Under the pieces are notes generated by a model. That model was not told the origin of the DNA. It worked only from the letters and a program-made list of their open reading frames with translations, and made no database searches. This document shows, in pieces, positions 8,580-62,206 of a stretch of DNA of 64,000 nt. A program made the position numbers and the translations under genes. The stretch is from a virus. The stretch covers positions 1-64,000 of the IMG/VR virus record IMGVR_UViG_3300031216_000012, one strand, 5' to 3'. Numbering within the stretch: position 1 is the stretch's first letter; every line of letters begins with the position of its first letter.

Positions 8580-9594
8580 AACAGCTGAAGAAGATCTGAC
8601 TATCCCGTTTGACGAGGATGGAGACGGCGAGGCGTCAAATGAAGTTGACACCGACGAAATCGAAGATGAAGTCGACACGGATGAAGTCGACACGGATGAA
8701 GTCGACACGGATGAAGTCGACACAGATGTAGACGACGCTGACGACGACGCTGACGACGACGCTGACGACGACGCTGACGACGCTGACGACGCTGATGACG
8801 ACGCTGACGACGACGCTGACGACGCTGACGACGCTGACGACGCTGACGACGACTCCGCTGACGATGCGGACGACTCGGACGACTCGGACGACTCGGACGC
8901 CGGCCGAACGGTCCCTTTGACCCGGTTAAAAGCAGAAACCAAGAAACGTCGGGAAGCAGAAGAGCGCGCCGCAAAGTACGAGATCGATCGACAGAAAAAG
9001 TCTTCCAGCAAGACGGAACAGATTAACGGAAGACTGACCGAGCTGGATGCGGAGATGGCAGAAGCGTCGCTTGAAGGCGATCAGGAAAAGTTTACGGCTC
9101 TTCGCAAAGAGGAACGGAAACTGAACTCGGAACTGCGAGAGCTTGAGATCAGCGAGTCTCAAACGCAGGCGCGTACCCAGGCTCGATTCGACGCGGCGCT
9201 TGAAGCGGCGGAAGAAAAATATCCAATGCTTAATCCCGACTCAGATCAGTTCAGCGAAGACGTCGAAGCAGAAATTACGGATCTGATGACTGCATACGTG
9301 GCGGCAGGACAGCCTTTGGACATCGCGCTCAACAAAGCAATCCGATATGTTGTTCCGCAGTACTTTGTACCAGAGGCTGAGGCGGAAGCGTCTCAAGAAA
9401 GTCTGCGAGCCAAGTCCACAACGAAAAAGCCCCCTCGCAAACCAAACGTAGGCGACCGCAATAAACAGCCTCCGAAAACGCGCAGTAAATCGACGTCAAC
9501 CCCGGCAAAGAAAGACGTTTGGGACATGTCGGACGCGGAGTTTGATAAGTGGGAAAAGACTGACGAGGCGAAAAAGATCCTCAAAGGCGCTTGA
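8566..9594 (+). CDS. Scaffold protein with a polyacidic repeat tract
   Basis: 342 residues. I chose ATG 8566 because AGGAG (8552-8556) sits nine bases upstream, against three for ATG 8560. Residues about 25-110 are almost only Asp, Ala, Glu, Val and Thr: VDTDE units and then (D)DAD units. A coiled-coil middle (KAETKKRREAEERAAKYE) and a basic C-terminal tail follow. Length, acidity, coiled coil and position between portal and capsid fit a head-assembly scaffold. The portal 3' end is overlapped by 14 bases. Confidence 0.75.
   Translation: MPPIKTAEEDLTIPFDEDGDGEASNEVDTDEIEDEVDTDEVDTDEVDTDEVDTDVDDADDDADDDADDDADDADDADDDADDDADDADDADDADDDSADDADDSDDSDDSDAGRTVPLTRLKAETKKRREAEERAAKYEIDRQKKSSSKTEQINGRLTELDAEMAEASLEGDQEKFTALRKEERKLNSELRELEISESQTQARTQARFDAALEAAEEKYPMLNPDSDQFSEDVEAEITDLMTAYVAAGQPLDIALNKAIRYVVPQYFVPEAEAEASQESLRAKSTTKKPPRKPNVGDRNKQPPKTRSKSTSTPAKKDVWDMSDAEFDKWEKTDEAKKILKGA
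8668..8890 (+). repeat. In-frame short tandem repeats encoding the polyacidic tract
   Basis: A 15-bp unit GAAGTCGACACGGAT repeats about four times up to 8725. From there to about 8890 the sequence consists of GCTGAC and GAC trinucleotide-type repeats. Such tracts are prone to slippage; because every unit is a multiple of three, length changes would keep the frame and alter only tract length. Confidence 0.9.
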
Positions 9595-41214: not shown

Positions 41215-41785
41215 CCTTCGGTTCTTCGATAAATTCTTCTCTAATGTAAACGCAACTGCCGATCGATTCTCGGAGCTCGTCTATGTCGCCGAGGTAGGTC
41301 CAGCTGGGAAGCAACACGCTGAGCTCGTTAGCATCCCAAACGTCCAGCGGTTTCTCTTTGTAGCCTTCTACAAAGTCATCGTAGAAACTGGCAAATCCCG
41401 GACGGGACTCGAACATCTCCTTGACGTCTTGACCTAAAGATTCCAAGCCAAGAGTCGCCCATCGAGCCATACGCAGATCTTCTACCGGGCCGGTGTATTC
41501 TGCCAACAGCTGGTCAGTCGTGAAGTTGTACTCCCGCGGAGAAATCAACTGCTTGAAAAGAAACTCGCCAGAAAAATCGTACTCTTCACGGAGCGCATTT
41601 TGATACCACTCAAGGTATTCCTTAGTTGCCTGTTCGAAATTATATCCGATAGAATCATACTCTAACGACTCGTCTTCTTCGAGAATGCACTCTGCTCCCC
41701 AGTCAAGCATGTCGGACAGTTCGCTTTCATAGAAACCTGGAAATGGGATGAATACTTCTACGTGTTCTTCGTTGTTCTCTGTCAC
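41207..41785 (-). CDS. Strongly acidic hypothetical protein
   Basis: 192 residues with very many Asp and Glu and few basic residues (CILEEDESLEYDSIGYNFEQ). Begins with FIPFPGFYESELSDML, a stretch I associate with small phage accessory proteins. Its overall charge would allow DNA mimicry, as in some anti-restriction proteins; that is inference. It overlaps the DNA polymerase stop, so it is co-translated with replication genes. Confidence 0.6.
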   Translation of the reverse strand: MTENNEEHVEVFIPFPGFYESELSDMLDWGAECILEEDESLEYDSIGYNFEQATKEYLEWYQNALREEYDFSGEFLFKQLISPREYNFTTDQLLAEYTGPVEDLRMARWATLGLESLGQDVKEMFESRPGFASFYDDFVEGYKEKPLDVWDANELSVLLPSWTYLGDIDELRESIGSCVYIREEFIEEPKVV

Positions 41786-43641
41786 TTGATGTACCTCTCA
41801 GTGATTTTACCTTCGGATGCCAGTGGAATTTTCGGGTTCCAATCTGGCGGGATTGACATGATTTCTGTCGCGTCGCGCAGGCACTGTTCAGCCTGGTGGT
41901 TAGGCACGCACATGATGACCTCATCGTGTACGAGCAGCACAACTTTGTAGAACCGACTCATCTCGAGCGCGTGGCCGGTAGTGATTGTCCTGCAGCGGCT
42001 CTGGATGATGTTCTCAAGCCATGCGCCGCCGTAGAGCTTCTTGGTGACGGCTTTCCTGTACCGCGGGTGGTAGGCGCGGTAGGTGAACTCTGCCGTGCCG
42101 TACTCTCCAATCTCGAGCTGCAGGTCCGGGTACTGCATCGTGAGCCCGTTGGGCATCAGCACCTTTCCTCCAGGCTGGATGACCAGACCACGAAACTCGA
42201 TCTCGTGTCGAGCGTCAGGCATCATGTACTGGATCAGGCTCTGCAGCTGGGACCACGTATCCTTGATCTTGTAATACTTGGCTCGGTACATCTGAACGAT
42301 GCGCTCAGCTTCATCCATATTCAAGTGAACAGCTGGCCCCATCGCGCCAGTCTCAAGCATCGATTGGAACTTGAAAGCTCCGCACTGATAGCCCAGACCG
42401 AGAATACCGGTCTTGCCGACAAAGCGCTCTTGCCAATTGTCATCCGCGTTGACTTCGAAACCGTAGAGCTCCGAGGCGAACGATGAGTAGACATCGACGC
42501 CTGCCGCGAACTCATCGACCAGATCCCACTGTTCACTGAACACTGCGTTGTCTCGAGCCTCAATCTGCGAGGCATCGATCACTACGAACGTGTGGCCTTT
42601 GGGTGCGGTCAGGCAGGAGCGCAGTCGGCCGTCGCGAGGCAGGTTCTGAGGATTGAACTGATCGCCGCCAGTAAAGCGGAACGTATGCGCTCCGCAGTAG
42701 CCCAGATAGATCGGCAGCGGGTGGCCTGACTTGACAATCATCTTCTTGGCACGGGTCTCGTTGATGCTGGTCTTGTTCGTGATGCGAGCGTCCATCAGCG
42801 AACGGACCCGAGGGTCTTCGTGCTTCATCAGCCGTTGGAACGGCAGGTCGTTCTTGGCGAACGCGAAGGTATCCTTGCCAGTCGTCGGGCTGACCTTCAT
42901 CGGCACTTCGACATCGAGCAACTCGAGCAGCTTGGCAAACTGCGGGTTCGAGCGGACCATCGTGCGGACCTGATCGATCTTCTTGTCAGAGAAGATCTCA
43001 GCCAGGGCAGCATCCTTGATCTCTTTCTCCTCGTCGATGATGCGCCGGGCGCCTTCCTTGTCAATGATAATCGCCGGGTCGGTAAACATGCGGATGGTCA
43101 GGTCGATCACGTCGAACTCGAAGCGCGGGAAGCCTCGCGCCATCAACAGGAACAGCTGCTCGGTCAGCGCGGTGTCCTGGTTGTTGTACCGGCGCATGTC
43201 GGCTTGCTGCTCAGGCGTGGCGTCGTCCCAGCGCAGCCCTTCCCAGCCCTCCAGCACGCCGGAGACCTTACCGTCCAATCCGTAGTAGCCTGCGACGGAT
43301 TGGAGGCTCGTGGAGCCGTGCTGACCCCACAGCGGCTTGGCCATTGCCATTGTGCAGGTGTAGCGGCCGGGGAGGAAGCCGAAGCAGTGGGAGATTGCAT
43401 AGCCGTCGAACTGCATGTGGTGGCCGTTGAGGATGACCTCACTGGCGTAAGGCTGAAGATCATCGAAAAACCGGCGGATGTCGTCGCCTACGATGAACTC
43501 AGGCTCCGCCATATCGAGCGTCTTCCACGACATTGTCATAACTTCGAAGTCGGGATGCTGCACGTAGAGGCTGGTGCCGAGCTTCTTGATACTGCACTTC
43601 TTGTCGTAGTAGGTTTCGAGGTCAAGCGTGATGAATTTCAT
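41782..43641 (-). CDS. Family A DNA polymerase with 3'-5' exonuclease
   Basis: 619 residues from ATG 43641 (GGAG upstream; the longer frame would need a TTG). Exonuclease motifs: LDLET (Asp7, Glu9), QFDG (Asp79) and YNNQD (Tyr152, Asp156). Polymerase motifs: A VIDASQIEAR (Asp356), B RFVGKTGILGLGY (Lys410, Tyr418) and C VHDE (572-574). There is no 5'-3' exonuclease domain. This is the replicative polymerase of the phage, expressed with a helicase and a primase-helicase encoded upstream in the same arm. Confidence 0.95.
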   Translation of the reverse strand: MKFITLDLETYYDKKCSIKKLGTSLYVQHPDFEVMTMSWKTLDMAEPEFIVGDDIRRFFDDLQPYASEVILNGHHMQFDGYAISHCFGFLPGRYTCTMAMAKPLWGQHGSTSLQSVAGYYGLDGKVSGVLEGWEGLRWDDATPEQQADMRRYNNQDTALTEQLFLLMARGFPRFEFDVIDLTIRMFTDPAIIIDKEGARRIIDEEKEIKDAALAEIFSDKKIDQVRTMVRSNPQFAKLLELLDVEVPMKVSPTTGKDTFAFAKNDLPFQRLMKHEDPRVRSLMDARITNKTSINETRAKKMIVKSGHPLPIYLGYCGAHTFRFTGGDQFNPQNLPRDGRLRSCLTAPKGHTFVVIDASQIEARDNAVFSEQWDLVDEFAAGVDVYSSFASELYGFEVNADDNWQERFVGKTGILGLGYQCGAFKFQSMLETGAMGPAVHLNMDEAERIVQMYRAKYYKIKDTWSQLQSLIQYMMPDARHEIEFRGLVIQPGGKVLMPNGLTMQYPDLQLEIGEYGTAEFTYRAYHPRYRKAVTKKLYGGAWLENIIQSRCRTITTGHALEMSRFYKVVLLVHDEVIMCVPNHQAEQCLRDATEIMSIPPDWNPKIPLASEGKITERYIK

Positions 43642-43751
43642 TCGTTGTAAAGTCTCCAAGCGTAGTGAGCAAAAGCCGCTTCGAGTTTATCGTGATACTC
43701 AGATCGTGACTCACCCATGTGTTTACAAACGTAGAAAACTTTACTGCTCAT
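43638..43751 (-). CDS. 37-residue ORF coupled to the polymerase
   Basis: ATG 43751 with GGGGAG upstream; its TGA overlaps the polymerase ATG (ATGA at 43641-43638). The peptide is soluble and aromatic (YHDKLEAAFAHYAWRLYNE). Perfect overlap and a good ribosome-binding site suggest a real gene, possibly serving translational coupling. Confidence 0.55.
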   Translation of the reverse strand: MSSKVFYVCKHMGESRSEYHDKLEAAFAHYAWRLYNE

Positions 43752-43883: not shown

Positions 43884-44648
43884 CTAGCAGATGTTTCTTC
43901 TACAGTGGCCAGTACCAGCGTAGGCGCGTTTACCGCGGCCGACTGTACCGGCTTTGAATGGGCAGAATCGGCAGGCAAACTGCGAGGGCTTGGCAGGGAA
44001 GATGGTGGCGTTGAGCACTTTCTCGTGACGCTCTCGAACTTTTGGCGTAGCTTGCTCGACTTGGGTGCGGGTAAACGTGCGCTTCATCAGGTTCTCGCCT
44101 GGGTGCAGGTCGAGATACCCGATCGCCACATCGAAAATCTGAATAGCAGGATCGACGTTGGCAACGCCGACTGCATATTCCATCAACTGATCGTGGTGCT
44201 TTACCTCGTTGCCCTTCTTCTTACCTGTTTTCCAGTCAAGGATGTACACACGAGAATCTGACACCGTGACGGCCACGTCGATGATCATGCGGTACACCGT
44301 GTTGGCAAAGTCATCGCCGGCTGAGATCTCCCAGTTAGCATCGAAAGCGATCGGTATCTCAAGGTCAACCTTCCCTTTCTCATATCCTGCACGGAATGCG
44401 TCGAGTAACGGCAGCTGGTGCCGGAGCTCGTGCTGCGGTTTGATCAGTGGATTCTGGACGTAGTTCTCACAGAGTGAGTGGATGCGCGACCCGCGATCCA
44501 TTGGATGCTCATCCCCTTCGGGGAGCTCAGGCGCCGGGTCAAGGATCTTGTCCAAGTGCTTATACTTGAACATGAGCGGGCAACGGTTAAAGTCACTAGC
44601 CCGTGAGAACGATGTGGACTTGACAATACGATCAGGTTCGATAGCCAT
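43884..44648 (-). CDS. Cas4/RecB-like PD-(D/E)xK exonuclease with Fe-S cysteines
   Basis: 254 residues from ATG 44648. Catalytic motifs IIDVAV (Asp124) and LDWKTG (Asp138, Lys140) are followed by a conserved-looking Tyr helix (QLMEYAVGV). Cys23 plus a C-terminal cluster C226xxC229...C249 matches the Cas4/AddB-type iron-sulfur pattern. Such enzymes resect DNA ends and act in phage recombination or replication. It lies between small ORFs and the polymerase. Confidence 0.8.
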   Translation of the reverse strand: MAIEPDRIVKSTSFSRASDFNRCPLMFKYKHLDKILDPAPELPEGDEHPMDRGSRIHSLCENYVQNPLIKPQHELRHQLPLLDAFRAGYEKGKVDLEIPIAFDANWEISAGDDFANTVYRMIIDVAVTVSDSRVYILDWKTGKKKGNEVKHHDQLMEYAVGVANVDPAIQIFDVAIGYLDLHPGENLMKRTFTRTQVEQATPKVRERHEKVLNATIFPAKPSQFACRFCPFKAGTVGRGKRAYAGTGHCRRNIC

Positions 44649-44880
44649 GATGTTCCTTACCTCGTGCGTAGTTGCGTGCATACTCTCTCAAGCGCTCCCA
44701 GGCCGGGTCGTCTTTGCGCAGACGATGAGGCAAGACGCGGATGCAGCGCCCCGTCTCTTTGTTGAAGGCGAACGATGCGGCGGTGAATGGCAGGCGTGTG
44801 TTCTGGTCTGCGTTGAACCGGCTGAAGTCGTCAGCGTTGACTTCAACAAGGAAGTAGTTTTTGCGTCGGACGAGTTTCAC
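44632..44880 (-). CDS. Hypothetical basic protein
   Basis: 82 residues. I chose GTG 44880, which overlaps the upstream stop and has GGAGGAG eight bases before it; an upstream ATG at 44934 would overlap the neighbour by 58 bases. Rich in Arg and Asn (RLPFTAASFAFNKETGRC, REYARNYARGKEHHG). Not recognised. Confidence 0.55.
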   Translation of the reverse strand: MKLVRRKNYFLVEVNADDFSRFNADQNTRLPFTAASFAFNKETGRCIRVLPHRLRKDDPAWERLREYARNYARGKEHHGYRT

Positions 44881-45059: not shown

Positions 45060-45154
45060 TAGTTGTTTTCCTCTTGTTCTACCATACGGTTTTCCCACAA
45101 AAGTCCGCACAATCCTAGCTCTAAAAAACCTACTTCGTCTGGGTACTCGTTCAT
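45059..45154 (-). CDS. 31-residue coupled ORF between helicase and next gene
   Basis: ATG 45154 overlaps the helicase stop (ATGA) and its TAA at 45059-45061 overlaps the next ATG (TAATG). The peptide is acidic (MNEYPDEVGFLELGLCGLLW). Exact fit between two coupled genes supports expression. Confidence 0.5.
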   Translation of the reverse strand: MNEYPDEVGFLELGLCGLLWENRMVEQEENN

Positions 45155-46524
45155 TTCAACATCCTCATCAGTTCGGTCATAGCGTCCAACTTCTCGTTGG
45201 TTCGTTCATACATTTGTTCTTCAAGCGTGCCAACGGCGCACACTCTGATGCTCTCAGTCGCGAGCTTCTGGCCACCGCGGCGAATGCGAGCGTCGCCCTG
45301 GACGAGCAGGTCGGCCCGGTCGGTGGGTGAGCACCAGATCGCTGAAGTGCCCTTGGTAAGCGTCAGGCCGTGTGCGCCCGACTGCGGGTGCATCAGGACG
45401 GTCTGGTACTTGCCGGCCTGGTACTCCTGCACGATCGAGCGTCGGTCAGCATCCTTGGTGTCGGAGCCGATCTCAACGAAGTCGACCTTCTTAGCCGTCA
45501 GCGACTCGACGAGCGCTTCGCGCTGGTGGCGCCAGTTCCAGAACACCACGCTGTGCGCACGCCCCAGGATCAGCTCGACAATGAGCTCGTTGCGGCCGCT
45601 GTCAAGCGTATAAGCACCGCTGGCGCCGTAGACGCGGCCCGAGGCCACCTGCAGTAGCTTCTGGCGCAGAGCAGCAGCGTTGACAGCCGTGACGTCGCCC
45701 TCTTTGAGCTCGAGCAGGCACTCCTTCTTCATCTCTTCGTAGAGCTTCATGAGCTTGGCTGACGGACGGTAGTTGAGCACGCGCTTGTCTTGATCTGGAA
45801 TGTCTTTCATCACGTCGTCGAACTCGTGGCGAACCGTGATGTCGGCCAAGATCTGAGAGACGCTTTCTTGTGCCTCGGGCTTGTCCTGCCACTTGATCCA
45901 GGACGGCTGCATCGGGTTGGTGATGACTGGCTGGCATACGGCGTCGCGGAATGCGGCAAAGCCTGTACCGAGCCGCTCACCGCCGTCGATGATCAACGTC
46001 TGGTGCCAGATGTCAGTGATGCTGGTGCTGGTCGGTGTGGCTGTCATACCAACTTTGTACTTGAAGTACGGTTCGTTTTTCCGGTGCAGCGGCGTGAGTA
46101 AGGCAATCTTTTTAAGCGCCTTAGAGCGCTGCGACGTGCGGTGCTTGAAGTAGCTGATCTCATCAATGATCAACGTGTCGAACTTTTCGAAGAACGTGCG
46201 CTTCTGCTTGGCGATCCACTTGACAGCGTCGGTGTTGGTGATGTAGATGTCAACGTCGGCATCGAACGCTTTGGCCCGATTGCTGGCGTAGGCCACAGAG
46301 AACGTAAGCTGCGGGTGGAACTTGGCGATGTCTTCTCCCCACGCTGGATCGAGCAGCGCTTTGGGGGCGACGACCAGGGCGCATTTACCGCTGTTCTTGC
46401 GACGGAACGCGAAGGCATCAAGTGCGGCCAAGGTCTTGCCGGTGCCGGCGTCAGACAGGTCAAGAAGAGTCGGTACTTTAAGTTGCTTTTTACTGGTCTG
46501 GATTTGATGCGGCCAACGTTTCAC
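45151..46524 (-). CDS. SNF2-like superfamily 2 helicase
   Basis: 457 residues. Motif I SDAGTGKT (24-31), motif II IIDEIS (119-124), motif III GMTATP (159-164) and motif VI QGDARIRRGGQ near 420 define a complete SF2 helicase of the SNF2/phage UvsW-like group. It would unwind or translocate on DNA during replication and recombination. The start overlaps the primase-helicase stop by four bases. Confidence 0.88.
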   Translation of the reverse strand: MKRWPHQIQTSKKQLKVPTLLDLSDAGTGKTLAALDAFAFRRKNSGKCALVVAPKALLDPAWGEDIAKFHPQLTFSVAYASNRAKAFDADVDIYITNTDAVKWIAKQKRTFFEKFDTLIIDEISYFKHRTSQRSKALKKIALLTPLHRKNEPYFKYKVGMTATPTSTSITDIWHQTLIIDGGERLGTGFAAFRDAVCQPVITNPMQPSWIKWQDKPEAQESVSQILADITVRHEFDDVMKDIPDQDKRVLNYRPSAKLMKLYEEMKKECLLELKEGDVTAVNAAALRQKLLQVASGRVYGASGAYTLDSGRNELIVELILGRAHSVVFWNWRHQREALVESLTAKKVDFVEIGSDTKDADRRSIVQEYQAGKYQTVLMHPQSGAHGLTLTKGTSAIWCSPTDRADLLVQGDARIRRGGQKLATESIRVCAVGTLEEQMYERTNEKLDAMTELMRMLK

Positions 46525-48839
46525 TTAACTGCCTCCAGTTGTGCTTTGTCTTCGATGCCGAACTCTGGCACCTGCCATTTAACCTCCAGCCCGAGCTTGC
46601 CGCCGTAGCGTTCGAAGAAGACGCCGTGGTGCTTGAGCATCTGAACGAACTTGGGCGTAGTGATTGGGACGGAGTCTCCGCTGACGGTGCGCAATAGAAC
46701 GTGCAGCGCGTCGCGGCTGATGAAGTGCTTTTCCCCACGCTTGGCCGCTCTCTGGGCCTCGACGATTGTGCGCGTCGCGTTGTCTACGGCGATGCGGTCG
46801 ACGTCGTGGCCTTGAGGCGATTGCTGCGTAGGGGCTACGTCGAGGATGCTCTGCAGGTCGCCCTGCTGCACAGCGCGAAGTACCAGGTGGACTGCAGAGC
46901 TGCTGAGCTCGTGCATCAGGTGCTTCTGCTGGCTGACGATCGGGGTGCGGAGCACTGAATGGTCAATGTTCCATTTGTACAAAATTGAGGTAAAGTCGAA
47001 CAGTTCGCTTTCGATCGAAGCGATCTCAGCGTCGCTCATAATGAGCCTTGTCTCTTGATAAGGTGCCACGTTGAAGCGTCTGTCCGTGTCGCTGATTGCG
47101 ACGGCTGATCGAGCGTTAGACGCTAGTATCAGATTCATGTAGTTTTTGGCTTCATAGTAATCAGTCCTCATTTTGCGAATTGGAACGACAGGGTCAGTAA
47201 TGGCTTGCTTGAGCTTGGCCATCGGCTTGCTGTTCGCGTCAAGTTGTTTCTGCTCTGTTTCGTCGAGCATGAGAATGACGCAATCCTCCATGAATGAGTT
47301 GAAGTTTTCGTTGAGCGCTGACATCAACGTGACGTTGACGTAGTTGTTCCCGATAATAGGTTTTAGGATGTTGTGAATCAAAAGTCCTTTGCCTGTTCCT
47401 TCGCAGCCGCTCAGCACCCAAGCCGTTTCAGTTCTTCGCCGTTTCTGAACAATGAACGCTAACCAGTTCAAGAACCGCTTGACGACGTCCATGTCGTCTC
47501 CGAGCGCTGACTTGAGGATCTTGGCTATGGTAGGAGGGAACTGTCCTGGCGAGGGGTTGAGCCTCGCATCGCGAAGGTACGGGGACTCATAGAAGCGATT
47601 AAGAAATCGCTCTTCTGGTACACACACGCGGTTATCATCGAAGCGGAACACGTAGTCCCACTCTTCCACAAACTCCCCGACCCACTGGTTGTGTTGTCGG
47701 AGGAAGTCTTCGAGCTTTTTGACAGCGCTGGTGGCATAAATGTCCAAGTTGGTTGTTTCGGGTTCGAAGGTGCCGCGGTAGTATACGTCCGAGCGGCGGT
47801 CGAGGAACGCAAGGTAAACGGTGTCTTGATCTTTAACGCCTTCTTGCTGAAGCTTTTTGTAATTCTTGTAATACTCAGGGACAATCTCTTTGGTGAGGTA
47901 GTTGGGCTCACCTTTGAAATTGAACAGGATCTCCGGGTTCTCAAGCGGGTGGTAGTAGCCCCAGCTGTCTCCGCCATTGAGGTTCAGGTACATGAAGCCC
48001 CGGCCTTGTTTGTAGCCAGTGACTGATACCACCCCTGGCTTGCTGACGACTTCGATACCACTGATCAGCTTGGTGTTAAACGTGCGGTGCTTGAGCCCTT
48101 TCTTTTTGCGAAGCTCAGAGAGCTTGGTATTCTTCTTTTCCTCAATAACTGCCGAGTCAATTTGAGCAAGCTGCTCTTTGAGATTGACCTTATCGTTTTC
48201 TTTTCTTACAAGACGGAGGCGATCTTCAGTAGGAACTGGGTCGTCCATCCCCACGCACTCGGGAGGTGCGATGTAGATCAACATGCCGTTGTGGGCAACA
48301 GCAACGTCGAGAGGCCATTGAAGCGCCGCGTTACTGCGTGTCAAACTGATCGATTTTTCAAACTCAGACAATGTCAGGTTCTGGTTCATCAACCAGTATT
48401 TCAACGTCTCTGGCAACACTTCGTGTTCGAGCATGAAATAGAGGTGCGCAGAAAACGGCTTATCTATCTTGTGGCCGGCGCCGTACTGCACGATGTAAGA
48501 GACGTCGCTCAGGCCCATTTGGGAAAGTAGCGAGTTGACCTGGTCTTCTGATTTGAGGTAGTCAAAGTCTAAACAAATCCAAGATGTAGGTGCCATTGGG
48601 TCTGTTTCAGAAGCCCTCGATTCTAATACCAAGTCTCGTTTAAGTTCGCCTTTAAGAAGGCAATGCCCGTTTCTGCTGTGATAACGCAAAGCGCTCAGCA
48701 TCTGATCGAGTGTGTGGACTTGTTCGCGATGAGACGTGACGTGCTTGACCATCGGGTAGGCATCTTTCTTGACGCCTTCGTCAGTCTGAGTGTACGTTTT
48801 GACCAGCGGAACGCGGGCTTCAAGAAAATGAAGCTCCAT
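46521..48839 (-). CDS. Primase-helicase (AEP primase and SF3 helicase)
   Basis: 772 residues. The N-terminal part has WICLDFDY (Asp91, Asp93) and GAGHK...FSAHLYF, the catalytic signatures of archaeo-eukaryotic primases. The C-terminal part has Walker A GCEGTGKG (478-485), Walker B VILMLDE (Asp526, Glu527) and motif C LILASN (Asn575) of SF3 helicases, and ends with a winged-helix-like region. It primes and unwinds at the fork, working with the family A polymerase. Confidence 0.88.
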   Translation of the reverse strand: MELHFLEARVPLVKTYTQTDEGVKKDAYPMVKHVTSHREQVHTLDQMLSALRYHSRNGHCLLKGELKRDLVLESRASETDPMAPTSWICLDFDYLKSEDQVNSLLSQMGLSDVSYIVQYGAGHKIDKPFSAHLYFMLEHEVLPETLKYWLMNQNLTLSEFEKSISLTRSNAALQWPLDVAVAHNGMLIYIAPPECVGMDDPVPTEDRLRLVRKENDKVNLKEQLAQIDSAVIEEKKNTKLSELRKKKGLKHRTFNTKLISGIEVVSKPGVVSVTGYKQGRGFMYLNLNGGDSWGYYHPLENPEILFNFKGEPNYLTKEIVPEYYKNYKKLQQEGVKDQDTVYLAFLDRRSDVYYRGTFEPETTNLDIYATSAVKKLEDFLRQHNQWVGEFVEEWDYVFRFDDNRVCVPEERFLNRFYESPYLRDARLNPSPGQFPPTIAKILKSALGDDMDVVKRFLNWLAFIVQKRRRTETAWVLSGCEGTGKGLLIHNILKPIIGNNYVNVTLMSALNENFNSFMEDCVILMLDETEQKQLDANSKPMAKLKQAITDPVVPIRKMRTDYYEAKNYMNLILASNARSAVAISDTDRRFNVAPYQETRLIMSDAEIASIESELFDFTSILYKWNIDHSVLRTPIVSQQKHLMHELSSSAVHLVLRAVQQGDLQSILDVAPTQQSPQGHDVDRIAVDNATRTIVEAQRAAKRGEKHFISRDALHVLLRTVSGDSVPITTPKFVQMLKHHGVFFERYGGKLGLEVKWQVPEFGIEDKAQLEAVK

Positions 48840-49482: not shown

Positions 49483-49832
49483 CGAACTACGACCTCCTCT
49501 CCGTTCTCGCTGAGGGCGCGTAGGGGGAATTTTGGGACAGTTGGTTTCCAAAGCACCCCGTCGATACTGATCCAGCATTCATCGCAGCAAATGAACTCGA
49601 GGCCATTATCCATGCTTTTAAAAGCCCGATACCCCGAATCCCAAGCCTCTAGGTGGCTGTGATAAAGCGTCGGCTCCAGCTTGGTATCACGCTGCCGGAC
49701 GAACATTCCTTTTCCTGGTCCTGTCATCGTTTCTTTCTCCTGCTGTGGTGTATTCAGCGCGATGGTCTCGGCTGCGTTTAGCTCGTCAAGTTTCGCCTCG
49801 GTGCCTACCGGGTGGACCTCGAAGTCAGTCAT
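49479..49832 (-). CDS. Hypothetical protein with a CCxxC patch
   Basis: 117 residues. Soluble and charged; the C-terminal half has FICCDECW, a possible metal site. Chained by ATGA overlaps to the repeat-protein genes upstream. Not recognised. Confidence 0.55.
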   Translation of the reverse strand: MTDFEVHPVGTEAKLDELNAAETIALNTPQQEKETMTGPGKGMFVRQRDTKLEPTLYHSHLEAWDSGYRAFKSMDNGLEFICCDECWISIDGVLWKPTVPKFPLRALSENGEEVVVR

Positions 49833-50275
49833 GATTCACCCCACTCTATGATGGTTTTTCCGTCTTCGTGGCTGATCCGCACACCAGACGCGAATATTTC
49901 TAGGCGGCAAGGCGATTTCCATTTGGTATGCGGCAATTTTCGCCCTTGTCTTTCTACGTATTCAGCAATCAACTTATCAGGCGGACAGAGAGGCCGGTTT
50001 GCCATCACCCGTTCTTTGTCGGCTGGACTAAGTCCAGTCAAGTCGATCGGACAGTCAGGCCGTTTAGCCATCACCCGTGCTCGGTCGTATGAATCAAGTC
50101 CAGTCAAGTCGATCGGACAATCCGACCGGTTTGCCATCACCCGTGCTCGGTTGTATGGACTAAGTCCAGTCAAGTCGATCGGACAGTCAGGCCTGTTGAT
50201 CATCACCCATGCTCGGTCGTATGAATCAAGTTCAGTCAGGTCGATCGCTCGCCCGTCTTCATTTGACGTTGTCAT
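49829..50275 (-). CDS. 22-residue-repeat protein, four units plus unique C-terminus
   Basis: 148 residues. Four units of the form IDLTGLxxxxRARVMxNRPDCP follow a short N-terminus; the last unit (LCP) runs into a unique tail ending SGVRISHEDGKTIIEWGE. The unit resembles leucine-rich-repeat-variant (LRV) or short alpha-solenoid repeats, one helix per unit with a Cys-Pro turn. First downstream of two longer family members in one operon, with four-base overlaps. Function unknown. Confidence 0.65.
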   Translation of the reverse strand: MTTSNEDGRAIDLTELDSYDRAWVMINRPDCPIDLTGLSPYNRARVMANRSDCPIDLTGLDSYDRARVMAKRPDCPIDLTGLSPADKERVMANRPLCPPDKLIAEYVERQGRKLPHTKWKSPCRLEIFASGVRISHEDGKTIIEWGES

Positions 50276-51420
50276 TTTATCTCCTCGAGTTCATTGTCAA
50301 TTGGACAATCCGACCGGTTTGCCATCACCAGTTCTTTGTCGGTTGGACCAAGTCCAGTAAGGTCGATCGGACAGTCTGACCGGTTTGCCATAACCCGTGC
50401 TCGGTGATGTGACTCAAGTTCAGTCAGGTCGATCGGACAGTCAGGCCTGTTGATCATCACCCGTTCTTTGTCGGCTGGATCAAGTCCAGTCAAGTCGATC
50501 GGACAGTCAGGCCTGTATGCCATTACCCATGATCGGTCACCTGAATCAAATCCAGTCAAGTCGATCGGACAGTCGGGCCTGTTGATCATCACCCGCGCTC
50601 TGTCGGTTGGACCAAGTCCAGTAAGGTCGATCGGACAGTCTGACCGGTTTGCCATAACCCGTGCTCGGTGATGTGACTCAAGTCCAGTCAGGTCGATCGG
50701 ACAGTCAGGCCTGTTGATCATCACCCGTACTCGGTCGTATGAATCAAGTCCAGTCAAGTCGATCGGACAGTCAGGCCTGTATGCCATTACCCATGATCGG
50801 TCAGATGGATCAAGTTCAGTCAGGTCGATCGGACAGTCGGGCCTGTTGATCATCACCCGCGCTCTGTCACGTGAATCAAGTCCAGTCAAGTCGATCGGAC
50901 AGTCAGGCCTGTCGATCATCAACCATGATCGGTCGTATGAATCAAGTCCAGTCAAGTCGATCTCTTCGTGGTTTAAAGTTGTCATTTTATCTCCTCGAGT
51001 TCATTGTCAATTGGACAGTCGGGCCTGTTGATCCTCACCAGTTCTTTGCCTGCTGGACCAAGTCCAGTAAGGTCGATCGGACAGTCGGGCCTGTTGATCA
51101 TCACCCGTGCTCGGCGCCATGAATTGAGTCCAGTCAAGTCGATCGGACAGTCAGGCCTGTTGATCATCACCCGTGCTCGGTCGTATGAATCAAGTCCAGT
51201 CAAGTCGATCGGGCAGTCAGGCCTGTTGATCATCACCCGTGCTCGGTCAGATGGATCAAGTTCAGTCAGGTCGATCGGACAGTCTGACCGGTTTGCCATA
51301 ACCCGTGCTCGGTGATGTGACTCAAGTCCAGTCAAGTCGATCGGACAGTCTGACCGGTTTGCCATAACCCGTGCTCGGTGATGTGACTCAAGTTCAGTCA
51401 GGTCGATCGGACAATCTGGG
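49850..51420 (-). repeat. Array of 66-bp repeats across three consecutive genes
   Basis: About 20 copies of a 66-bp unit, recognisable by CAGTCAAGTCGATCGGACAG and CATCACCCGTGCTCGG on the plus strand, interrupted only by gene boundaries near 50275 and 50985. The boundaries themselves are duplicated (TTTTATCTCCTCGAGTTCAT before both). Near-identity of non-adjacent units implies recombination among them. Confidence 0.9.
50272..50985 (-). CDS. 22-residue-repeat protein, ten tandem units
   Basis: 237 residues: eight leader residues, ten consecutive 22-residue units and a tail NELEEIK. Every unit keeps IDLT-(G/E)-(L/F) and (R/K)-V-M followed by RPDCP or RSDCP, with the LDSYDRARV-type central positions varying. 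Variants such as ESHHRARVM and GPTD recur at five- or six-unit spacing, a sign of block duplication. A regular solenoid suited to protein binding is inferred. The longest member of the family here. Confidence 0.7.
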   Translation of the reverse strand: MTTLNHEEIDLTGLDSYDRSWLMIDRPDCPIDLTGLDSRDRARVMINRPDCPIDLTELDPSDRSWVMAYRPDCPIDLTGLDSYDRVRVMINRPDCPIDLTGLESHHRARVMANRSDCPIDLTGLGPTDRARVMINRPDCPIDLTGFDSGDRSWVMAYRPDCPIDLTGLDPADKERVMINRPDCPIDLTELESHHRARVMANRSDCPIDLTGLGPTDKELVMANRSDCPIDNELEEIK

Positions 51421-51566
51421 AAATGAGTCATAGCCCAGACAGCCCAATCAGGTCTGTGTCCTACTAACTCTGTCCAAGTTCTGGGCTGCTCACGAAGCCA
51501 CTCAATAGCTTTTAAGGAAGCTTGTTCTTTAACAGCTTGTTTAATCATCTTATTTGTGATTCTCAT
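50982..51566 (-). CDS. 22-residue-repeat protein with N-terminal cap, six units
   Basis: 194 residues. A 53-residue cap (KAIEWLREQPRTWTELVGHR) precedes six 22-residue units and the same NELEEIK tail as 50272-50985. The cap is shared, with few changes, by 58762-59193. The cap contains its own RPDWAVWAM segment, a divergent repeat. Start of the repeat-gene chain, all linked by ATGA overlaps. Confidence 0.7.
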   Translation of the reverse strand: MRITNKMIKQAVKEQASLKAIEWLREQPRTWTELVGHRPDWAVWAMTHFPDCPIDLTELESHHRARVMANRSDCPIDLTGLESHHRARVMANRSDCPIDLTELDPSDRARVMINRPDCPIDLTGLDSYDRARVMINRPDCPIDLTGLNSWRRARVMINRPDCPIDLTGLGPAGKELVRINRPDCPIDNELEEIK

Positions 51567-51571
51567 GGTGG

Positions 51572-51859
51572 TTATTCTTCTGCAAGTCGGTGGACTTCTT
51601 CTTGGACAAGGTCTTTATACCGTTCAATAATTATCGGGCGGCTAAGCGTCGTTCCACCTCTGTCTAGTGGATACCCCGGCTGGACCTTGAAGCGCCCATT
51701 GCCAATATTTTCCACCAGCTCCGCGCCATAATCGCCGCCGTATACCGCGTTTACTACGGCGCTCAATTCCATTCTTCTGGGCGGGTTTGGTAGATTGTTA
51801 CTTGAGATAGTAGCGAATGGTGAATTTTCGTTCATGTGAAACAGTTTATAAGTTCCCAT
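51572..51859 (-). CDS. Hypothetical protein
   Basis: 95 residues, shares its first base with the stop of the upstream gene. Has VVNAVYGGDYGAELVENIGN, then a beta stretch and a charged helix at the end (ERYKDLVQEEVHRLAEE). Not recognised. Confidence 0.55.
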   Translation of the reverse strand: MGTYKLFHMNENSPFATISSNNLPNPPRRMELSAVVNAVYGGDYGAELVENIGNGRFKVQPGYPLDRGGTTLSRPIIIERYKDLVQEEVHRLAEE

Positions 51860-52581
51860 TATGTCAACTCCTCGATGTCTGCGGGCTGGTAGCTGACGCT
51901 GCTGACCGGCTCCATGAAATGTACAGCTTTGACGGTGTCCAAGTCAACGTGGTCTGCAATGCCGTTGGTCTTGTAGTCGCGGCCGTAAAAGCCCCAGCAG
52001 GAGAGGTCGCTATCGACTTCCTCGCCGTGCTCGTCGACCAGAACGAAGCCGTACACATCGCCGGTGAGGTACTGGTCGTACATCTCAACTTCGCGGCGCA
52101 GAATAGCTTCGATGTGCTTTTCAAGCGTGTCATGACCGTGTGCGGGGTACTCCGACGTAAACTCGCGCTCTACCTCATCCCGACGCACGTAGATGAATCC
52201 GACCTGTCCCGAGTCCCACGAACAAGTGAATGCTCCGGTGCTCATGGTGATGCCACTATGGTCGTAAAGATATAGCGGCAGCGAGATGTAGAAATGGTCG
52301 AACATGCGGCCAGTAAACTCGTTGCACTGTTCTTCGATGTGATCCCCGTCTTGGGTCAGCGTATACAGGTAGTCAGCGTACTGCTTGAGCCAATCCTCAA
52401 AGTCAGGCTCCATCTCGCACACCAGGTTGATGCGGTGTTCTTGTGGATCGCCAAGAGGCTGCTTGTCACCGAGGATGTAGCGGCCATGCCAGCAGGCCAT
52501 CGTGCCGAGGTTGTCCCATTCACGAGGTGACTCGGGTGAGCTGTCTCGGAATATTTGAAGGGTGTGGATGCGTTGGGTCAT
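51859..52581 (-). CDS. Hypothetical early protein
   Basis: 240 residues from ATG 52581 (ATGA overlap with the upstream stop). Acidic and aromatic, with segments CWHGRYILGDKQPLGDPQEH and CSWDSGQVGFIYVRRDEV. Proteins of this look are common in phage early regions as accessory genes, but I assign no function. Confidence 0.6.
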   Translation of the reverse strand: MTQRIHTLQIFRDSSPESPREWDNLGTMACWHGRYILGDKQPLGDPQEHRINLVCEMEPDFEDWLKQYADYLYTLTQDGDHIEEQCNEFTGRMFDHFYISLPLYLYDHSGITMSTGAFTCSWDSGQVGFIYVRRDEVEREFTSEYPAHGHDTLEKHIEAILRREVEMYDQYLTGDVYGFVLVDEHGEEVDSDLSCWGFYGRDYKTNGIADHVDLDTVKAVHFMEPVSSVSYQPADIEELT

Positions 52582-52814
52582 TGTTCTGGTCTCCAAAAGC
52601 GAAAGCCCTTCAGCAGTTGTCTGCCACGCTGAAGGAATGTGGTGTGGCTACCGTCGATCTTGGCCCAGTAAGCCATCACGTTCTTACACTGCACACAGGC
52701 CGCTTTGGGGTCTTGGCCTTGGCTAACGTGCATGTCGTAGAGCTTATGGGCTTGCTCGATAATCTTGGCCGGGTACTTTTTACGTCGGCCGTAGCGGGTG
52801 AGTTGGGATTTCAT
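52578..52814 (-). CDS. Small basic protein with Cys pair
   Basis: 78 residues. Basic N-terminus (RYGRRKKYPAKIIEQAHKLY) and a CVQC pair; probably nucleic-acid binding. Start 52814 has AGGAG upstream. Overlaps the next gene by four bases. Confidence 0.55.
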   Translation of the reverse strand: MKSQLTRYGRRKKYPAKIIEQAHKLYDMHVSQGQDPKAACVQCKNVMAYWAKIDGSHTTFLQRGRQLLKGFRFWRPEQ

Positions 52815-54756: not shown

Positions 54757-55653
54757 TTACTCCTTTGTGAATTTGGAAAACGATGCTTTGCCAGTAAGTT
54801 CGGTCAGAGGAATTTTGTCGTTATTTCCAGGCGTTAAAGTTACGCCTTCATTGTCAATCGGACAGTCAGGCCGTTTAGCCATCACCCGCGCTCGGTTGTA
54901 TGGACTAAGTCCAGTCAAGTCGATCGTGTACCACGAACTGTCCATGTCGGTGTCTTCGACGAGAATGACGGCGCCAGACTGGAGTTCAGAAGGTGATGCA
55001 ACAAACCAGCCATTGTCGCCACTGTTTACACCAGCGTATCCAAACCTAGACACTTTTTTTACTGTAAATGTGTCGTTGAGTTTTGGGCTAATTTCTTGGC
55101 CAGGGGGGCAGTAATTATTGTAGTCTGTGGGGATCTCGAAGTTGTACCAATCTACGACGCGGTAAGTTTTTCCTATTTCGTATCCCATGACATTGTCTTT
55201 TTGTGGCTCGCTGAAGTCGAACCTCGAAGCTGTCCAGTCGATGTTATTGAGGAAGGGGATGAACCGGGGGTTTGGGTGGCTGCGTTCGTAGGAGGAATCT
55301 ACTCGAGCGCAACACCAAGAATTACTGCTGCGCTTAGGCAGACTATCGAACTTAAACCATGTATCGTCTCCATCTTTCGCAACGAAGCGATGAGAGCCAG
55401 TCAGCGCAACTTCGAATGCCTTCTCAACGAGCCTCTTGATGACTGGCGAGTCTTTATGCACGGCGTAGTTGTGTCTGAGGTCGGAGAATCCGTATCCGTA
55501 AGAGCGTACTAGACAGCGCCATTCGGTTAATGTCGGGCTCCAGTACATAATGTTGCCTGCATAGGTCGATATGGTGTTGTCCGGTAGCGAGTTGAGCAGC
55601 TCGCCCGATCCGACGTAGATGTAGTCGGCAGGTAATTTAGTAGTGCCCATCAT
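54757..55653 (-). CDS. Hypothetical protein carrying one grafted 22-residue repeat
   Basis: 298 residues. Residues 1-240 are unrelated to the repeat family and include the segment shared with 53761-54222. Residues 244-265 are a perfect family unit (IDLTGLSPYNRARVMAKRPD, then CP) followed by IDNE as in the ends of the long repeat genes, then a unique tail. The nucleotide sequence 54850-54927 matches the repeat arrays closely, so the unit was probably inserted by recombination. Start ATG 55653 overlaps the upstream stop. Confidence 0.6.
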   Translation of the reverse strand: MMGTTKLPADYIYVGSGELLNSLPDNTISTYAGNIMYWSPTLTEWRCLVRSYGYGFSDLRHNYAVHKDSPVIKRLVEKAFEVALTGSHRFVAKDGDDTWFKFDSLPKRSSNSWCCARVDSSYERSHPNPRFIPFLNNIDWTASRFDFSEPQKDNVMGYEIGKTYRVVDWYNFEIPTDYNNYCPPGQEISPKLNDTFTVKKVSRFGYAGVNSGDNGWFVASPSELQSGAVILVEDTDMDSSWYTIDLTGLSPYNRARVMAKRPDCPIDNEGVTLTPGNNDKIPLTELTGKASFSKFTKE

Positions 55654-57715: not shown

Positions 57716-57832
57716 CTGGTTGCAACTGACTGGTTGCGCTTTGTTGCCACTGACTGGTTGCAACTGACTGGTTGCAACTGACTGGTTGCGCTTTGTTGTC
57801 ATTGACTGGTTGCAACTGACTGGTTGCAAAAA
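57716..57832. repeat. Array of seven CTGGTTGC repeats with palindromic cores
   Basis: CTGGTTGC begins at 57716, 57730, 57754, 57768, 57782, 57806 and 57820, a 14-24-14-14-24-14 spacing. Within the 14-bp unit the core GTTGCAAC is its own reverse complement. The longer intervals contain GCTTTGTTG. The arrangement looks like an ordered set of protein-binding sites. Translations across it are low-complexity and probably not expressed. Confidence 0.85.
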
Positions 57833-58705: not shown

Positions 58706-58775
58706 GATGTACTCCTAAGTTGGTAGAGCCGCTTACCGGGATTGGCAGGCGGCATAGTAGTTCATGCTCCGTAGA
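58703..58775. repeat. Left 73-bp direct repeat flanking a repeat-protein gene
   Basis: Matches 59191-59263 with a single difference (T58733 against C59221). On the minus strand it contains the last codons of the upstream gene (YGA stop), the overlapping ten-codon ORF, a TAGGAG site and the ATG of the next gene. With its twin it brackets the gene 58762-59193. Confidence 0.92.
58733..58765 (-). CDS. Ten-codon ORF MNYYAACQSR, copy 1
   Basis: ATG 58765 overlaps the stop of 58762-59193 (ATGA). The stop is TAA here and TAG in copy 2, the only difference between the repeats, and it leaves the peptide unchanged. Probably a translational-coupling device; stable peptide unlikely. Confidence 0.3.
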   Translation of the reverse strand: MNYYAACQSR

Positions 58776-59193
58776 CGTCGGGCCGGTTTGCCCTAACCTC
58801 CGCTCGGTCACCTGAATAAAGTCCGGTCAAGTCGACCGGACATCCAGGCCTTTCTATCATCACTCGTGCTCGGTCACCTGAATCAAGCCCAGTCAAGTCA
58901 ACTGGGCAGTCAGGCCTTTCTATCATCACTCGTGCTCGGTCGTATGGACAAAGTCCATCTAAGTCAATCTGACAGTCAGGCCTGTCGATCATTACCCATG
59001 ATCGGCCCCCTGAATCAAGTCCGGTCAAGTCGATCGGGCAATCTGGGATATGAGTCATAGCCCAGACAGCCCAACCAGGTCTGTGTCCTACTAACTCTGT
59101 CCAAGTTCTGGGCTGCTCACGAAGCCACTCAATAGCTTCTAAGCAAGCTTGTTTTTTAACAGCTTGTTTAATCATATTATTTGTGATTCTCAT
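58762..59193 (-). CDS. 22-residue-repeat protein with N-terminal cap, four units
   Basis: 143 residues. The cap (KQACLEAIEWLREQPRTWTE) matches that of 50982-51566 almost residue for residue. Four units follow, more diverged than elsewhere (IDLDGLCPYDRARVMIERPD, VDLTGLYSGDRAEV), and the last ends in DVYGA inside the direct repeat. ATG 59193 has TAGGAG upstream. It lies 7 kb from its relatives between direct repeats, which suggests a translocated copy. Confidence 0.7.
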   Translation of the reverse strand: MRITNNMIKQAVKKQACLEAIEWLREQPRTWTELVGHRPGWAVWAMTHIPDCPIDLTGLDSGGRSWVMIDRPDCQIDLDGLCPYDRARVMIERPDCPVDLTGLDSGDRARVMIERPGCPVDLTGLYSGDRAEVRANRPDVYGA

Positions 59194-60346: not shown

Positions 60347-60652
60347 ATGACCACTTTTTTCAGTAACACTACGGCTGCAGGAACGTCGACCGCGTACCCC
60401 GTCAACATCAACGGGGGAGAGCTGATGGCGTTTAACGTTGAAGGTCTTGGCGACGCTACGATCCAGCTCCAGCGACTCGCCCCCAGCGGCAATTACATCC
60501 CCGTGCTCTATAACGGCGCCGCAGACATTGACACCGACGGCCACTACATTGTCGACGGTCTATCCGGCACGTACCGCGTCGTGCAGGCAGGAACATCCGA
60601 CGGTCTGTACGCCAGCCTGGAGACTGAAAACGCAGCCCGAGTAGCCCTGTAA
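60347..60652 (+). CDS. Small appendage or fibre-associated protein
   Basis: 101 residues, beta-rich (AYPVNINGGELMAFNVEGLG, HYIVDGLSGTYRVVQAGTSD) and lacking membrane segments. Sits directly before the fibre gene (stop overlaps its ATG, TAATG), typical of small virion-attachment or fibre-hinge proteins. Not recognised. Confidence 0.55.
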   Translation: MTTFFSNTTAAGTSTAYPVNINGGELMAFNVEGLGDATIQLQRLAPSGNYIPVLYNGAADIDTDGHYIVDGLSGTYRVVQAGTSDGLYASLETENAARVAL

Positions 60653-61593
60653 TGCGCAGCGCTTCTCGTAACGCTCTGGGCCTGGCGCTTGGTTCGGCGC
60701 TTCGGGTTGGGCTTGGCGGTGGGGCCACCAGTGCGCCAGCCTTTACCTTTGTCATGCGAACTACGGGCGCGTCTGAGACTGTAACGCTGCCGATGACTGG
60801 CAGTGTCAATACCGTGATTGATTGGGGCGATGGATCACCGCCTGAAACCGTCACCACAGATAGCATAACGCACGTTTACGCCACGGCTGATGATTACACG
60901 ATTGCGATAACGGGAAGCTGTGATGTCTTCGCGTTTGACAACGCTGGTGACAAGCTGAAGCTTATTGAGCTCCTGGCATGGGGTACGGACTTTACCTTTT
61001 CGGACCTTGACTTCTTTGGCTGCTCAAATCTGGTTACAGCCAGCGATCTTGGAGCAAGTGGAGCAACGCCGACCTATCTTTCAAACGCGTTCCGAAGCTG
61101 CACAGGCCTGACCAGTCTTGATCTCACTGGTTTTGACACATCTTCCTGTACAGATATGAATAGCATGTTCGCTGGCTGCTCAAGCCTGACCAGTCTTGAT
61201 CTCACAAGCTTTGACACATCTTCCTGTGCAAGTATGAATAGCATGTTCCTTGTCTGCTCAAGCCTGACCAGTCTTGATCTCACAAGCTTTGACACATCTT
61301 CTTGTACAGATATGAATAGCATGTTCGTTTTCTGCTCAAGCCTGACCAGTGACCCAGGCATAGTCGGGTTTAATGTTGAGTCTTTGACGACAGCGGCAAG
61401 CATGTGCTTCATCGCAAACTCTATGCTCTCAACCGCAGAGTACAACGCCATCCTCGTTGCATGGGAAGCGCAAGCGGTCCAGAACAATGTTAACGTTCAC
61501 TTCGGCGACGCGACTTATTCAGGCGCAGGCGCAACAGCACGGGCTGCCTTGATCGCTGATGGCTGGACGGTGAGTGACGGTGGGGAAGCCTGA
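60652..61593 (+). CDS. Fibre protein with PKD-like domain and BspA repeats (complete copy)
   Basis: 313 residues. After a hydrophobic Gly-rich N-terminus, residues about 55-88 (VIDWGDGSPPETVTTDSITH, VYATADDYTIAI) match the PKD fold signature. Residues about 115-260 hold BspA/DUF285 leucine-rich units of 26 residues (LTSLDLTSFDTSSC, MNSMF). Both modules are typical of adhesive surface proteins, so receptor binding is inferred. Three nearly identical units imply recent expansion. The left-edge frame 1-721 is the same gene. Confidence 0.75.
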   Translation: MRSASRNALGLALGSALRVGLGGGATSAPAFTFVMRTTGASETVTLPMTGSVNTVIDWGDGSPPETVTTDSITHVYATADDYTIAITGSCDVFAFDNAGDKLKLIELLAWGTDFTFSDLDFFGCSNLVTASDLGASGATPTYLSNAFRSCTGLTSLDLTGFDTSSCTDMNSMFAGCSSLTSLDLTSFDTSSCASMNSMFLVCSSLTSLDLTSFDTSSCTDMNSMFVFCSSLTSDPGIVGFNVESLTTAASMCFIANSMLSTAEYNAILVAWEAQAVQNNVNVHFGDATYSGAGATARAALIADGWTVSDGGEA

Positions 61594-61676
61594 TGCGGCT
61601 AAGGCATGGAAGAACCGCAATGCATGAGCGGATGCAAACCAAGGGGCTAACATTTGAGGAGGCGATTGCCGCATGA
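61593..61676 (+). CDS. 27-residue coupled small ORF (right copy)
   Basis: Identical to 721-804: ATGA overlaps at both ends join the fibre gene to the carbohydrate-binding gene. Confidence 0.45.
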   Translation: MRLRHGRTAMHERMQTKGLTFEEAIAA

Positions 61677-62206
61677 GCCAAGAAATCAACAAACCAGCAG
61701 AACCCACATACTGGAGAGCATACGGCCCCGATGGCACTATCCATGAGGGCGTAACGGAACCCAATCAGGTCACCACCACCGGACAGCCCGACTTTGTGTT
61801 TTCAGCAGACCCAGCTGAGTACGCTGGCATGGTGGCAGCATCAGGATCAACCGTACAGCCCATGCCGCCACCGCCTGTAGGGACTGCTCTAGGTGAGGCC
61901 GTAATTCGAGGTCAGGTATACGATTTCAACGGAACCGTGTATATCTGCGTACAAGACCACAACCGGATGCAGTTCCCGCCCGACCAGACACCGGCGCTAT
62001 GGACACCTGCCCGCTTGCAAGCGGAACCATGGGTGCAGCCGACAGGGGCGCAGGACGCATACGCCGTAGGTGATCGAGTAACACACGACCGACCAGCAGA
62101 TGGCGGTGCTATCTGGCTGTTTGAAAGTAAGATTCCTGCCAACACCACGCAGCCCGGCAGAGATGGCACATTCGACCGATGGTGGGAGCCCGTGGAGGCC
62201 GTATGA
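61673..62206 (+). CDS. Carbohydrate-binding (CBM5/12-like) fibre-associated protein (right copy)
   Basis: 177 residues, the same protein as 801-1334 despite five synonymous base differences clustered in the last 170 bases. The two CBM5/12-like segments are unchanged. Its stop overlaps a nine-codon ORF (62203-62232) that starts lysis module B. Confidence 0.6.
   Translation: MSQEINKPAEPTYWRAYGPDGTIHEGVTEPNQVTTTGQPDFVFSADPAEYAGMVAASGSTVQPMPPPPVGTALGEAVIRGQVYDFNGTVYICVQDHNRMQFPPDQTPALWTPARLQAEPWVQPTGAQDAYAVGDRVTHDRPADGGAIWLFESKIPANTTQPGRDGTFDRWWEPVEAV

What the first reader, a model, noticed from the sequence alone, without database searches (positions are those of the whole stretch)
49829..51566. 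Family of 22-residue solenoid-like repeats in three chained genes
Three consecutive genes are built of 4, 10 and 6 copies of a 22-residue unit (IDLTGL....R.RVM.NRPDCP), encoded by 66-bp repeats. The spacing of Leu, Val/Met, Pro, Cys and Pro recalls leucine-rich-repeat-variant or other one-helix solenoids. Surface-facing positions (DSYD, ESHH, GPTD, SPYN, DPAD, NSWR) vary while the framework is fixed, the signature of a binding scaffold. With members at 58762 and 54757 there are about 25 units. I know no described phage system of this form; a modular binder of host or defence proteins is an attractive hypothesis.
Basis: partly seen in the sequence, partly recalled or inferred. Interest (0 to 1): 0.85.

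Follow-up and report, generated by a model that had tools for sequence, protein, structure and literature searches.

The report
Phage one-helix solenoid repeat protein family
This phage carries five genes holding copies of a 22-residue unit predicted to stack into a helical rod, with a fixed framework and a variable surface on one side; four other phages, three of them unrelated, carry the same family, which looks like a set of quickly reshuffled binding proteins whose targets are unknown.

Summary
In detail: three overlapping minus-strand genes hold 4, 10 and 6 units of 22 residues, and genes at 58762 and 54757 add 4 and 1 (25 in all). AlphaFold2 predicts one 10-residue helix per unit, stacked in a solenoid (pLDDT 90 and 94 for two relatives), behind a four-helix N-terminal cap. 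The family occurs in four further phage or phage-like contigs. One is a relative of this phage; the other three are unrelated to it and to each other. Across the phages the framework is under purifying selection (pN/pS about 0.2) although synonymous codons have turned over. Positions 9, 10, 13, 16 and 17 vary and lie on one face of the helix. Units are homogenised within each phage, blocks are copied between paralogues, and one cassette was exchanged between two unrelated phages. The genes mostly lie beside replication or recombination genes. Best reading: a fast-evolving set of intracellular protein binders used in host takeover or counter-defence; no target or function is shown. No curated family is met. 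Similarity to leucine-rich repeat variant (LRV) proteins is suggestive but inconclusive.

The parts
50982..51566 (-). 194-aa repeat gene: N-terminal cap plus 6 units
   Evidence: AF2 pLDDT 89.6
   Evidence: conserved in P1, P2, P4 and P5
51012..51407 (-). Array of six 22-residue units
50272..50985 (-). 237-aa repeat gene: 10 units, no cap
50302..50961 (-). Array of ten 22-residue units
49829..50275 (-). 148-aa repeat gene: 4 units plus a unique C-terminal tail
49982..50245 (-). Array of four 22-residue units
50978..51014 (-). Duplicated gene junction (IDNELEEIK end, Shine-Dalgarno sequence, ATGA overlap, next start)
50268..50304 (-). Second copy of the same gene junction
58762..59193 (-). 143-aa repeat gene: the same cap as the 194-aa gene plus 4 units
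54859..54924 (-). Single unit inside the otherwise unrelated 298-aa ORF (54757-55653); 61/66 bases identical to unit 3 and 60/66 to unit 2 of the 148-aa gene
51859..52596 (-). Associated neighbour of unknown function (phrog_6186, E=1.5e-30); homologues lie next to the repeat genes in P2 and P4
41782..48839 (-). Replication block downstream in the same direction: primase-like (46521-48839), helicase (45151-46524), RecB-like exonuclease (43884-44681), DNA polymerase (41782-43659); core conserved in KPP25

Best explanation
The genes encode a family of soluble, acidic solenoid proteins built of a 22-residue unit. Each unit is one alpha-helix (positions 8-17) plus a turn segment (R-P-D-C-P-I-D-L-T-G-L), and units stack side by side, in most members behind a four-helix cap. 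The framework residues hold the stack; positions 9, 10, 13, 16 and 17 project from one face and form a variable binding surface. Units and blocks are copied, lost and exchanged between paralogues by recombination, so new surfaces arise quickly, and the cassette moves between unrelated phages. The proteins are probably made early, with the replication genes, and most likely bind host or host-defence proteins inside the infected cell (takeover or counter-defence). Shown by computation: the units, the predicted solenoid, the selection pattern, homogenisation, exchange and gene position. Inferred: early expression, protein binding, and the class of target.
For: 25 units in 5 genes. Two AF2 models, pLDDT 89.6 and 94.0, pTM about 0.8, one helix per unit at the same positions. 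Family in four further contigs: P2 IMGVR_3300023199_000106, P3 SCSZ01000034.1, P4 IMGVR_3300048592_000454, P5 IMGVR_3300023214_000082. Only P1 and P2 are related overall (33 of 73 ORFs); the other pairs share little beyond the repeats, a few universal phage proteins and, for P1/P2 with P4, the phrog_6186 neighbour. Framework pN/pS 0.17-0.29 against 0.6-1.4 at positions chosen from P1 alone and tested in P2-P4. Entropy profiles agree between phages (Spearman 0.38-0.78; nine of ten pairs P<0.03) and cluster on one helix face (pooled, positions 9-18: R=0.58, permutation P=0.0035). Third-position identity is 0.72-0.83 within phages and 0.36-0.55 between (P2-P5 0.74, recent exchange). Exact shared blocks of 63-137 bp between paralogues. 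P2 and P5 share a two-gene cassette at about 84-91% DNA identity with almost no other DNA similarity. Position beside Erf/exonuclease/SSB genes in P5, an Erf-like gene in P3, and primase/helicase/polymerase in P1 and P2. Acidic pI 4.5-6.1 in all correctly framed proteins.
Against: No binding partner, expression or phenotype is known. AF2 readily folds regular repeats into solenoids, so pLDDT on repeats overstates certainty. Foldseek found no significant match in PDB or BFVD. Variable positions could be merely unconstrained rather than diversifying (pN/pS about 1, not clearly above). The family was found in only five contigs, so it is not a general phage strategy. In P4 the repeat genes lie more than 10 kb from the polymerase and helicase genes.
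Confidence: 0.5

Rival explanations
1. They are a shortened branch of the bacterial LRV (leucine-rich repeat variant) family that entered phages; the function is whatever LRV proteins do (unknown). This concerns ancestry and is compatible with the binder reading.
For: tblastn of the 237-aa protein finds a true LRV protein on Synechocystis plasmid pSYSA (E=2e-5, 27% over 86%; LRV E=4.5e-65). Shared NPxCP / NRPDCP-[IV]-[DE] motif. Pfam LRV sub-threshold in relatives (15.1 bits against 21.6). An independently picked Moorella phage LRV protein scores above period-keeping shuffles (z 1.6-6.7).
Against: Below the Pfam cut-off; 0 matches in own-genome search. Unit length 22. hhalign aligns only 7 columns, probability 5%. 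No similarity to 1LRV. In a control, antisense readings of unrelated repeat genes, picked by the same kind of database search, also scored z up to 12, so repeat-to-repeat E-values are inflated.
Confidence: 0.4
2. The solenoids are scaffolds or regulators of the phage's own replication or recombination machinery, not of host proteins.
For: Position next to replication or recombination genes in P1, P2, P3 and P5.
Against: The neighbouring replication genes are of different types (Erf/SSB against primase/helicase/PolA), while the same repeat family is used with each. KPP25 keeps the replication core but no similarity was found in its early region and no relative in 50,697 phage records. Fast surface change does not fit a fixed phage partner.
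Confidence: 0.2
3. A nucleic-acid-binding solenoid (PUF-, TALE- or PPR-like in action), each unit reading one element through residues 9, 13 and 17.
For: One variable face repeated unit by unit; PUF domains appear among the weak structural alignments.
Against: All correctly framed proteins are acidic (pI 4.5-6.1); the unit has one helix, not two or three; structural Z is about 4-6, not discriminating.
Confidence: 0.1
4. Neutral or selfish expansion of a 66-bp repeat with no function.
For: Strong DNA-level homogenisation; one unit sits inside an otherwise unrelated ORF.
Against: Framework pN/pS 0.17-0.29, third-position turnover between phages, a conserved cap, translational coupling and retention in unrelated phages.
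Confidence: 0.05

Closest known systems
Leucine-rich repeat variant proteins (Pfam PF01816; Azotobacter LRV protein, PDB 1lrv; Synechocystis pSYSA WP_011153692)
   Same: Short helical repeat with an [NR]PxCP-[IV]-[DE]-type turn and predicted one alpha-helix per unit
   Different: 22 residues instead of 24-26; below the Pfam cut-off; N-terminal helical cap of its own; hypervariable helix face; early-type phage cassette
Designed repeat binders (alphaRep, designed armadillo proteins)
   Same: Fixed framework with variable positions on one surface; they appear among the weak structural alignments (Z about 5-6)
   Different: Two or three helices per 31-42-residue repeat and engineered; no sequence relation. 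A working analogy only
Phage ankyrin-repeat proteins (ankyphages, phage WO)
   Same: Solenoid binding proteins encoded by phages as accessory genes
   Different: Ankyrin fold of about 33 residues with two helices; proposed targets are in animal hosts; no sequence relation (from general knowledge; literature leads only)
BspA/DUF285 LRR protein in the same phage (60652-61593)
   Same: Another repeat protein of this phage
   Different: Pfam PF03382 (E=5.4e-21), with different repeats, on the other strand

Membership tests
LRV (PF01816) | Profile match above the curated cut-off (21.6 bits) | tested here: not met
   No match in own genome at E<=10; best relative 15.1 bits
LRV (PF01816) | Repeat length of 24-26 residues | tested here: not met
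   22 residues in all clean units
LRV (PF01816) | One alpha-helix and one 3-10 helix per repeat in a superhelix | tested here: inconclusive
   One alpha-helix per unit predicted; 3-10 segment and handedness not resolved in the tool's output; 1lrv not among the aligned candidates
LRV (PF01816) | Sequence similarity to known LRV proteins beyond chance | tested here: inconclusive
   pSYSA E=2e-5 and Moorella z 1.6-6.7, but 1LRV negative and controls show inflation
Azotobacter-type LRV protein | N-terminal cysteine cluster for 4Fe-4S | tested here: not met
   Cap has at most two Cys and no Pfam match
HEAT/ARM/alphaRep | Two or three helices per 30-45-residue repeat | tested here: not met
   One helix per 22 residues in two predicted models
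PUF/TALE/PPR nucleic-acid readers | 33-36-residue multi-helix repeats | tested here: not met
   One helix per 22 residues in two predicted models; proteins are also acidic
Diversity-generating retroelement target | Reverse transcriptase in the same genome | tested here: inconclusive
   No RVT_1 match in P1, P2, P4 or P5 records; records may be incomplete and no template repeat was sought
Phage counter-defence protein | Restores infection in a cell carrying a defence system | not testable with these tools
   Needs a plaque assay

The most novel reading that the evidence does not exclude
A phage-borne modular recognition system: each 22-residue unit is an exchangeable reading module whose four or five surface residues set specificity, and phages re-shuffle units and swap cassettes to retarget a set of inhibitors against changing host defences.
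Probability: 0.15. Interest if true: 0.88.

Novelty: new variant of a known kind. Interest (0 to 1): 0.58.

Why it matters
If right, unrelated phages share a natural repertoire of modular binders that evolves by unit shuffling, a viral analogue of designed repeat proteins. It would offer a compact (22 residues per unit) scaffold for engineering and a route to unknown host or defence targets. Even if the targets are ordinary, the family is unannotated and structurally distinct enough to deserve a name.

Tried and rejected
Pfam, PHROGs, NCBIfam and PADLOC hits to the repeat proteins are short scraps summed over repeats (Pellino_RING, Zn_ribbon_RlmA, phrog_7582, Erm32, CARF4 and others), almost none with a single significant stretch; treated as artefacts. 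Pellino_RING at 28.3 bits exceeds its cut-off in one P3 protein but only as a sum, with no stretch passing. tblastn hits to EBPR siphovirus 3 and Vibrio phage YC are unrelated proteins; hits on a Photobacterium and a Streptomyces plasmid are antisense to the annotated genes. The ETS1 match of the cap is E=0.4, chance. Foldseek and VIA-align give no fold assignment (best Z 6.3, in the range of unrelated solenoids); 1lrv did not appear among the aligned chains. No relative in 50,697 phage records or, besides G002 itself, in 192 sampled genomes of its phylum. No relatives of the 298-aa ORF were found, so whether its unit is an insertion could not be tested. The pI of p4_c is from a wrong frame and is ignored. 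Stop-to-stop ORF selection dropped the P3 sense frames in favour of antisense ones, so P3 protein counts there are lower bounds. Literature searches found no description of the family.

Full report
The observation. Searches confirm the three chained minus-strand genes and the unit counts 4, 10 and 6, plus 4 units at 58762-59193 and 1 at 54757-55653. The consensus is I-D-L-T-G-L-x-S-x-D-R-A-x-V-M-x-x-R-P-D-C-P. The 194- and 143-aa proteins share an N-terminal cap; the 237- and 148-aa proteins begin almost directly with units. The two gene junctions carry the same DNA (end of IDNELEEIK, Shine-Dalgarno sequence, ATGA overlap, MTT start), so whole genes were probably duplicated.

The host phage. 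The window is 64 kb of a 65.8-kb viral record. Terminase (40%) and the primase-like protein (37%) point to a distant relative of Pseudomonas phage KPP25. KPP25 keeps the polymerase, exonuclease, helicase and primase-like genes, but none of the other window genes tested has a match in its early region, where about twenty small hypothetical genes precede the primase-like gene. The repeat genes thus sit in an accessory zone upstream of the replication block. Early expression is inferred from this position, not shown.

Relatives. Pattern and profile scans of 2.9 million viral contigs and 84,980 genomes found four more carriers: P2, a relative of this phage with the genes in the same place; P3, a contig binned with a Patescibacteria MAG, with an Erf-like gene just downstream; P4, a 59-kb phage with three capped genes; and P5, a 30-kb fragment with one gene directly after Erf, exonuclease and SSB genes. 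All-against-all comparison shows that apart from P1/P2 these phages share little else: distant polymerase, helicase or terminase matches, an intein-like match, and the phrog_6186 neighbour in P1, P2 and P4. P2 and P5 share about 0.9 kb (repeat gene plus a 75-aa gene) at about 84-91% identity, with only one other short DNA match, which points to a recent transfer. The carriers are few; scans by short peptide patterns miss distant members.

Structure. AF2 models of the P1 194-aa protein and a P4 234-aa protein reach mean pLDDT 89.6 and 94.0. Both show a four-helix cap and then one 10-residue helix per unit at unit positions 8-17. The alignments were shallow (7 and 11 rows) and regular repeats favour solenoid models, so this is strong but not proof. 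Foldseek finds nothing significant in PDB or BFVD, and VIA-align gives only generic solenoids at Z about 5-6.

Selection and surface. Per-position entropy agrees between phages (Spearman 0.38-0.78). The variable positions 9, 10, 13, 16 and 17 fall within about 120 degrees of an ideal helix; conserved 11, 14, 15 and 18 lie on the other side (permutation P=0.0035 for positions 9-18 and 0.013 for 8-17 on the pooled profile). To avoid circularity, variable positions were chosen in P1 and tested in P2, P3 and P4: pN/pS 0.6-1.4 there against 0.17-0.29 in the framework. Synonymous codons are shared within a phage but much less between phages, and exact blocks of up to 137 bp recur between paralogues: concerted evolution by recombination. 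No reverse transcriptase was found, which argues against a diversity-generating retroelement.

Is it an LRV? The sequence link is worth naming and too weak to file under. It fails the Pfam cut-off and the repeat length. A tblastn hit to a genuine LRV protein has E=2e-5, but a control showed that chance antisense readings of other repeat genes, picked by the same kind of search, can score as well. A Moorella phage LRV protein picked without reference to our query scores modestly above period-keeping shuffles, and 1LRV does not. hhalign finds only a 7-column motif.

Function. The best-supported reading is a set of intracellular protein-binding solenoids. For: several paralogues per phage, variable face, fixed framework, fast unit turnover, mobility between unrelated phages, early-type position, acidic charge. 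A counter-defence or takeover target is a common reason for such a pattern in phages (general knowledge), but it is inference. Rivals are a replication scaffold, a nucleic-acid reader and neutral expansion; the last is disfavoured by the selection data.

Noticed in passing
window 1-1330 and 60873-62200: Direct repeat: 1165 bp identical, about 98-99% to 1.3 kb, then unrelated sequence. It holds the end of a DUF285 LRR gene and a 177-aa gene, followed by different downstream genes at the two copies (probably two different lysis-type genes). Real duplication or assembly join not resolved.
   Followed up: partly
window 60652-61593: BspA-like DUF285 leucine-rich repeat protein (PF03382, E=5.4e-21), a second kind of repeat protein in this phage; relatives in P2 and P4.
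   Followed up: partly
window 23941-32910: 2989-aa open frame; a homologous frame in P2 is 62% identical over 1078 residues. Function not examined.
   Followed up: no
window 8639-8899: Dense GACGACGCT-type tandem repeats between the portal-like and major head protein genes.
   Followed up: no
window 57716-57829: 14/52-bp tandem repeats of CTGGTTGCAACTGA in a stretch without clear genes.
   Followed up: no
L037 10492-12213 and L045 11866-14307: The P2 exonuclease-like gene is much longer than its P1 homologue and matches part of a large P5 frame (29%) that also resembles the window's terminase: both look intein-containing.
   Followed up: no
window 51859-52596; L034 4240-4932; L036 754-1533: phrog_6186 protein of unknown function lies beside the repeat genes in P1, P2 and P4, although P4 is otherwise unrelated.
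   Followed up: partly
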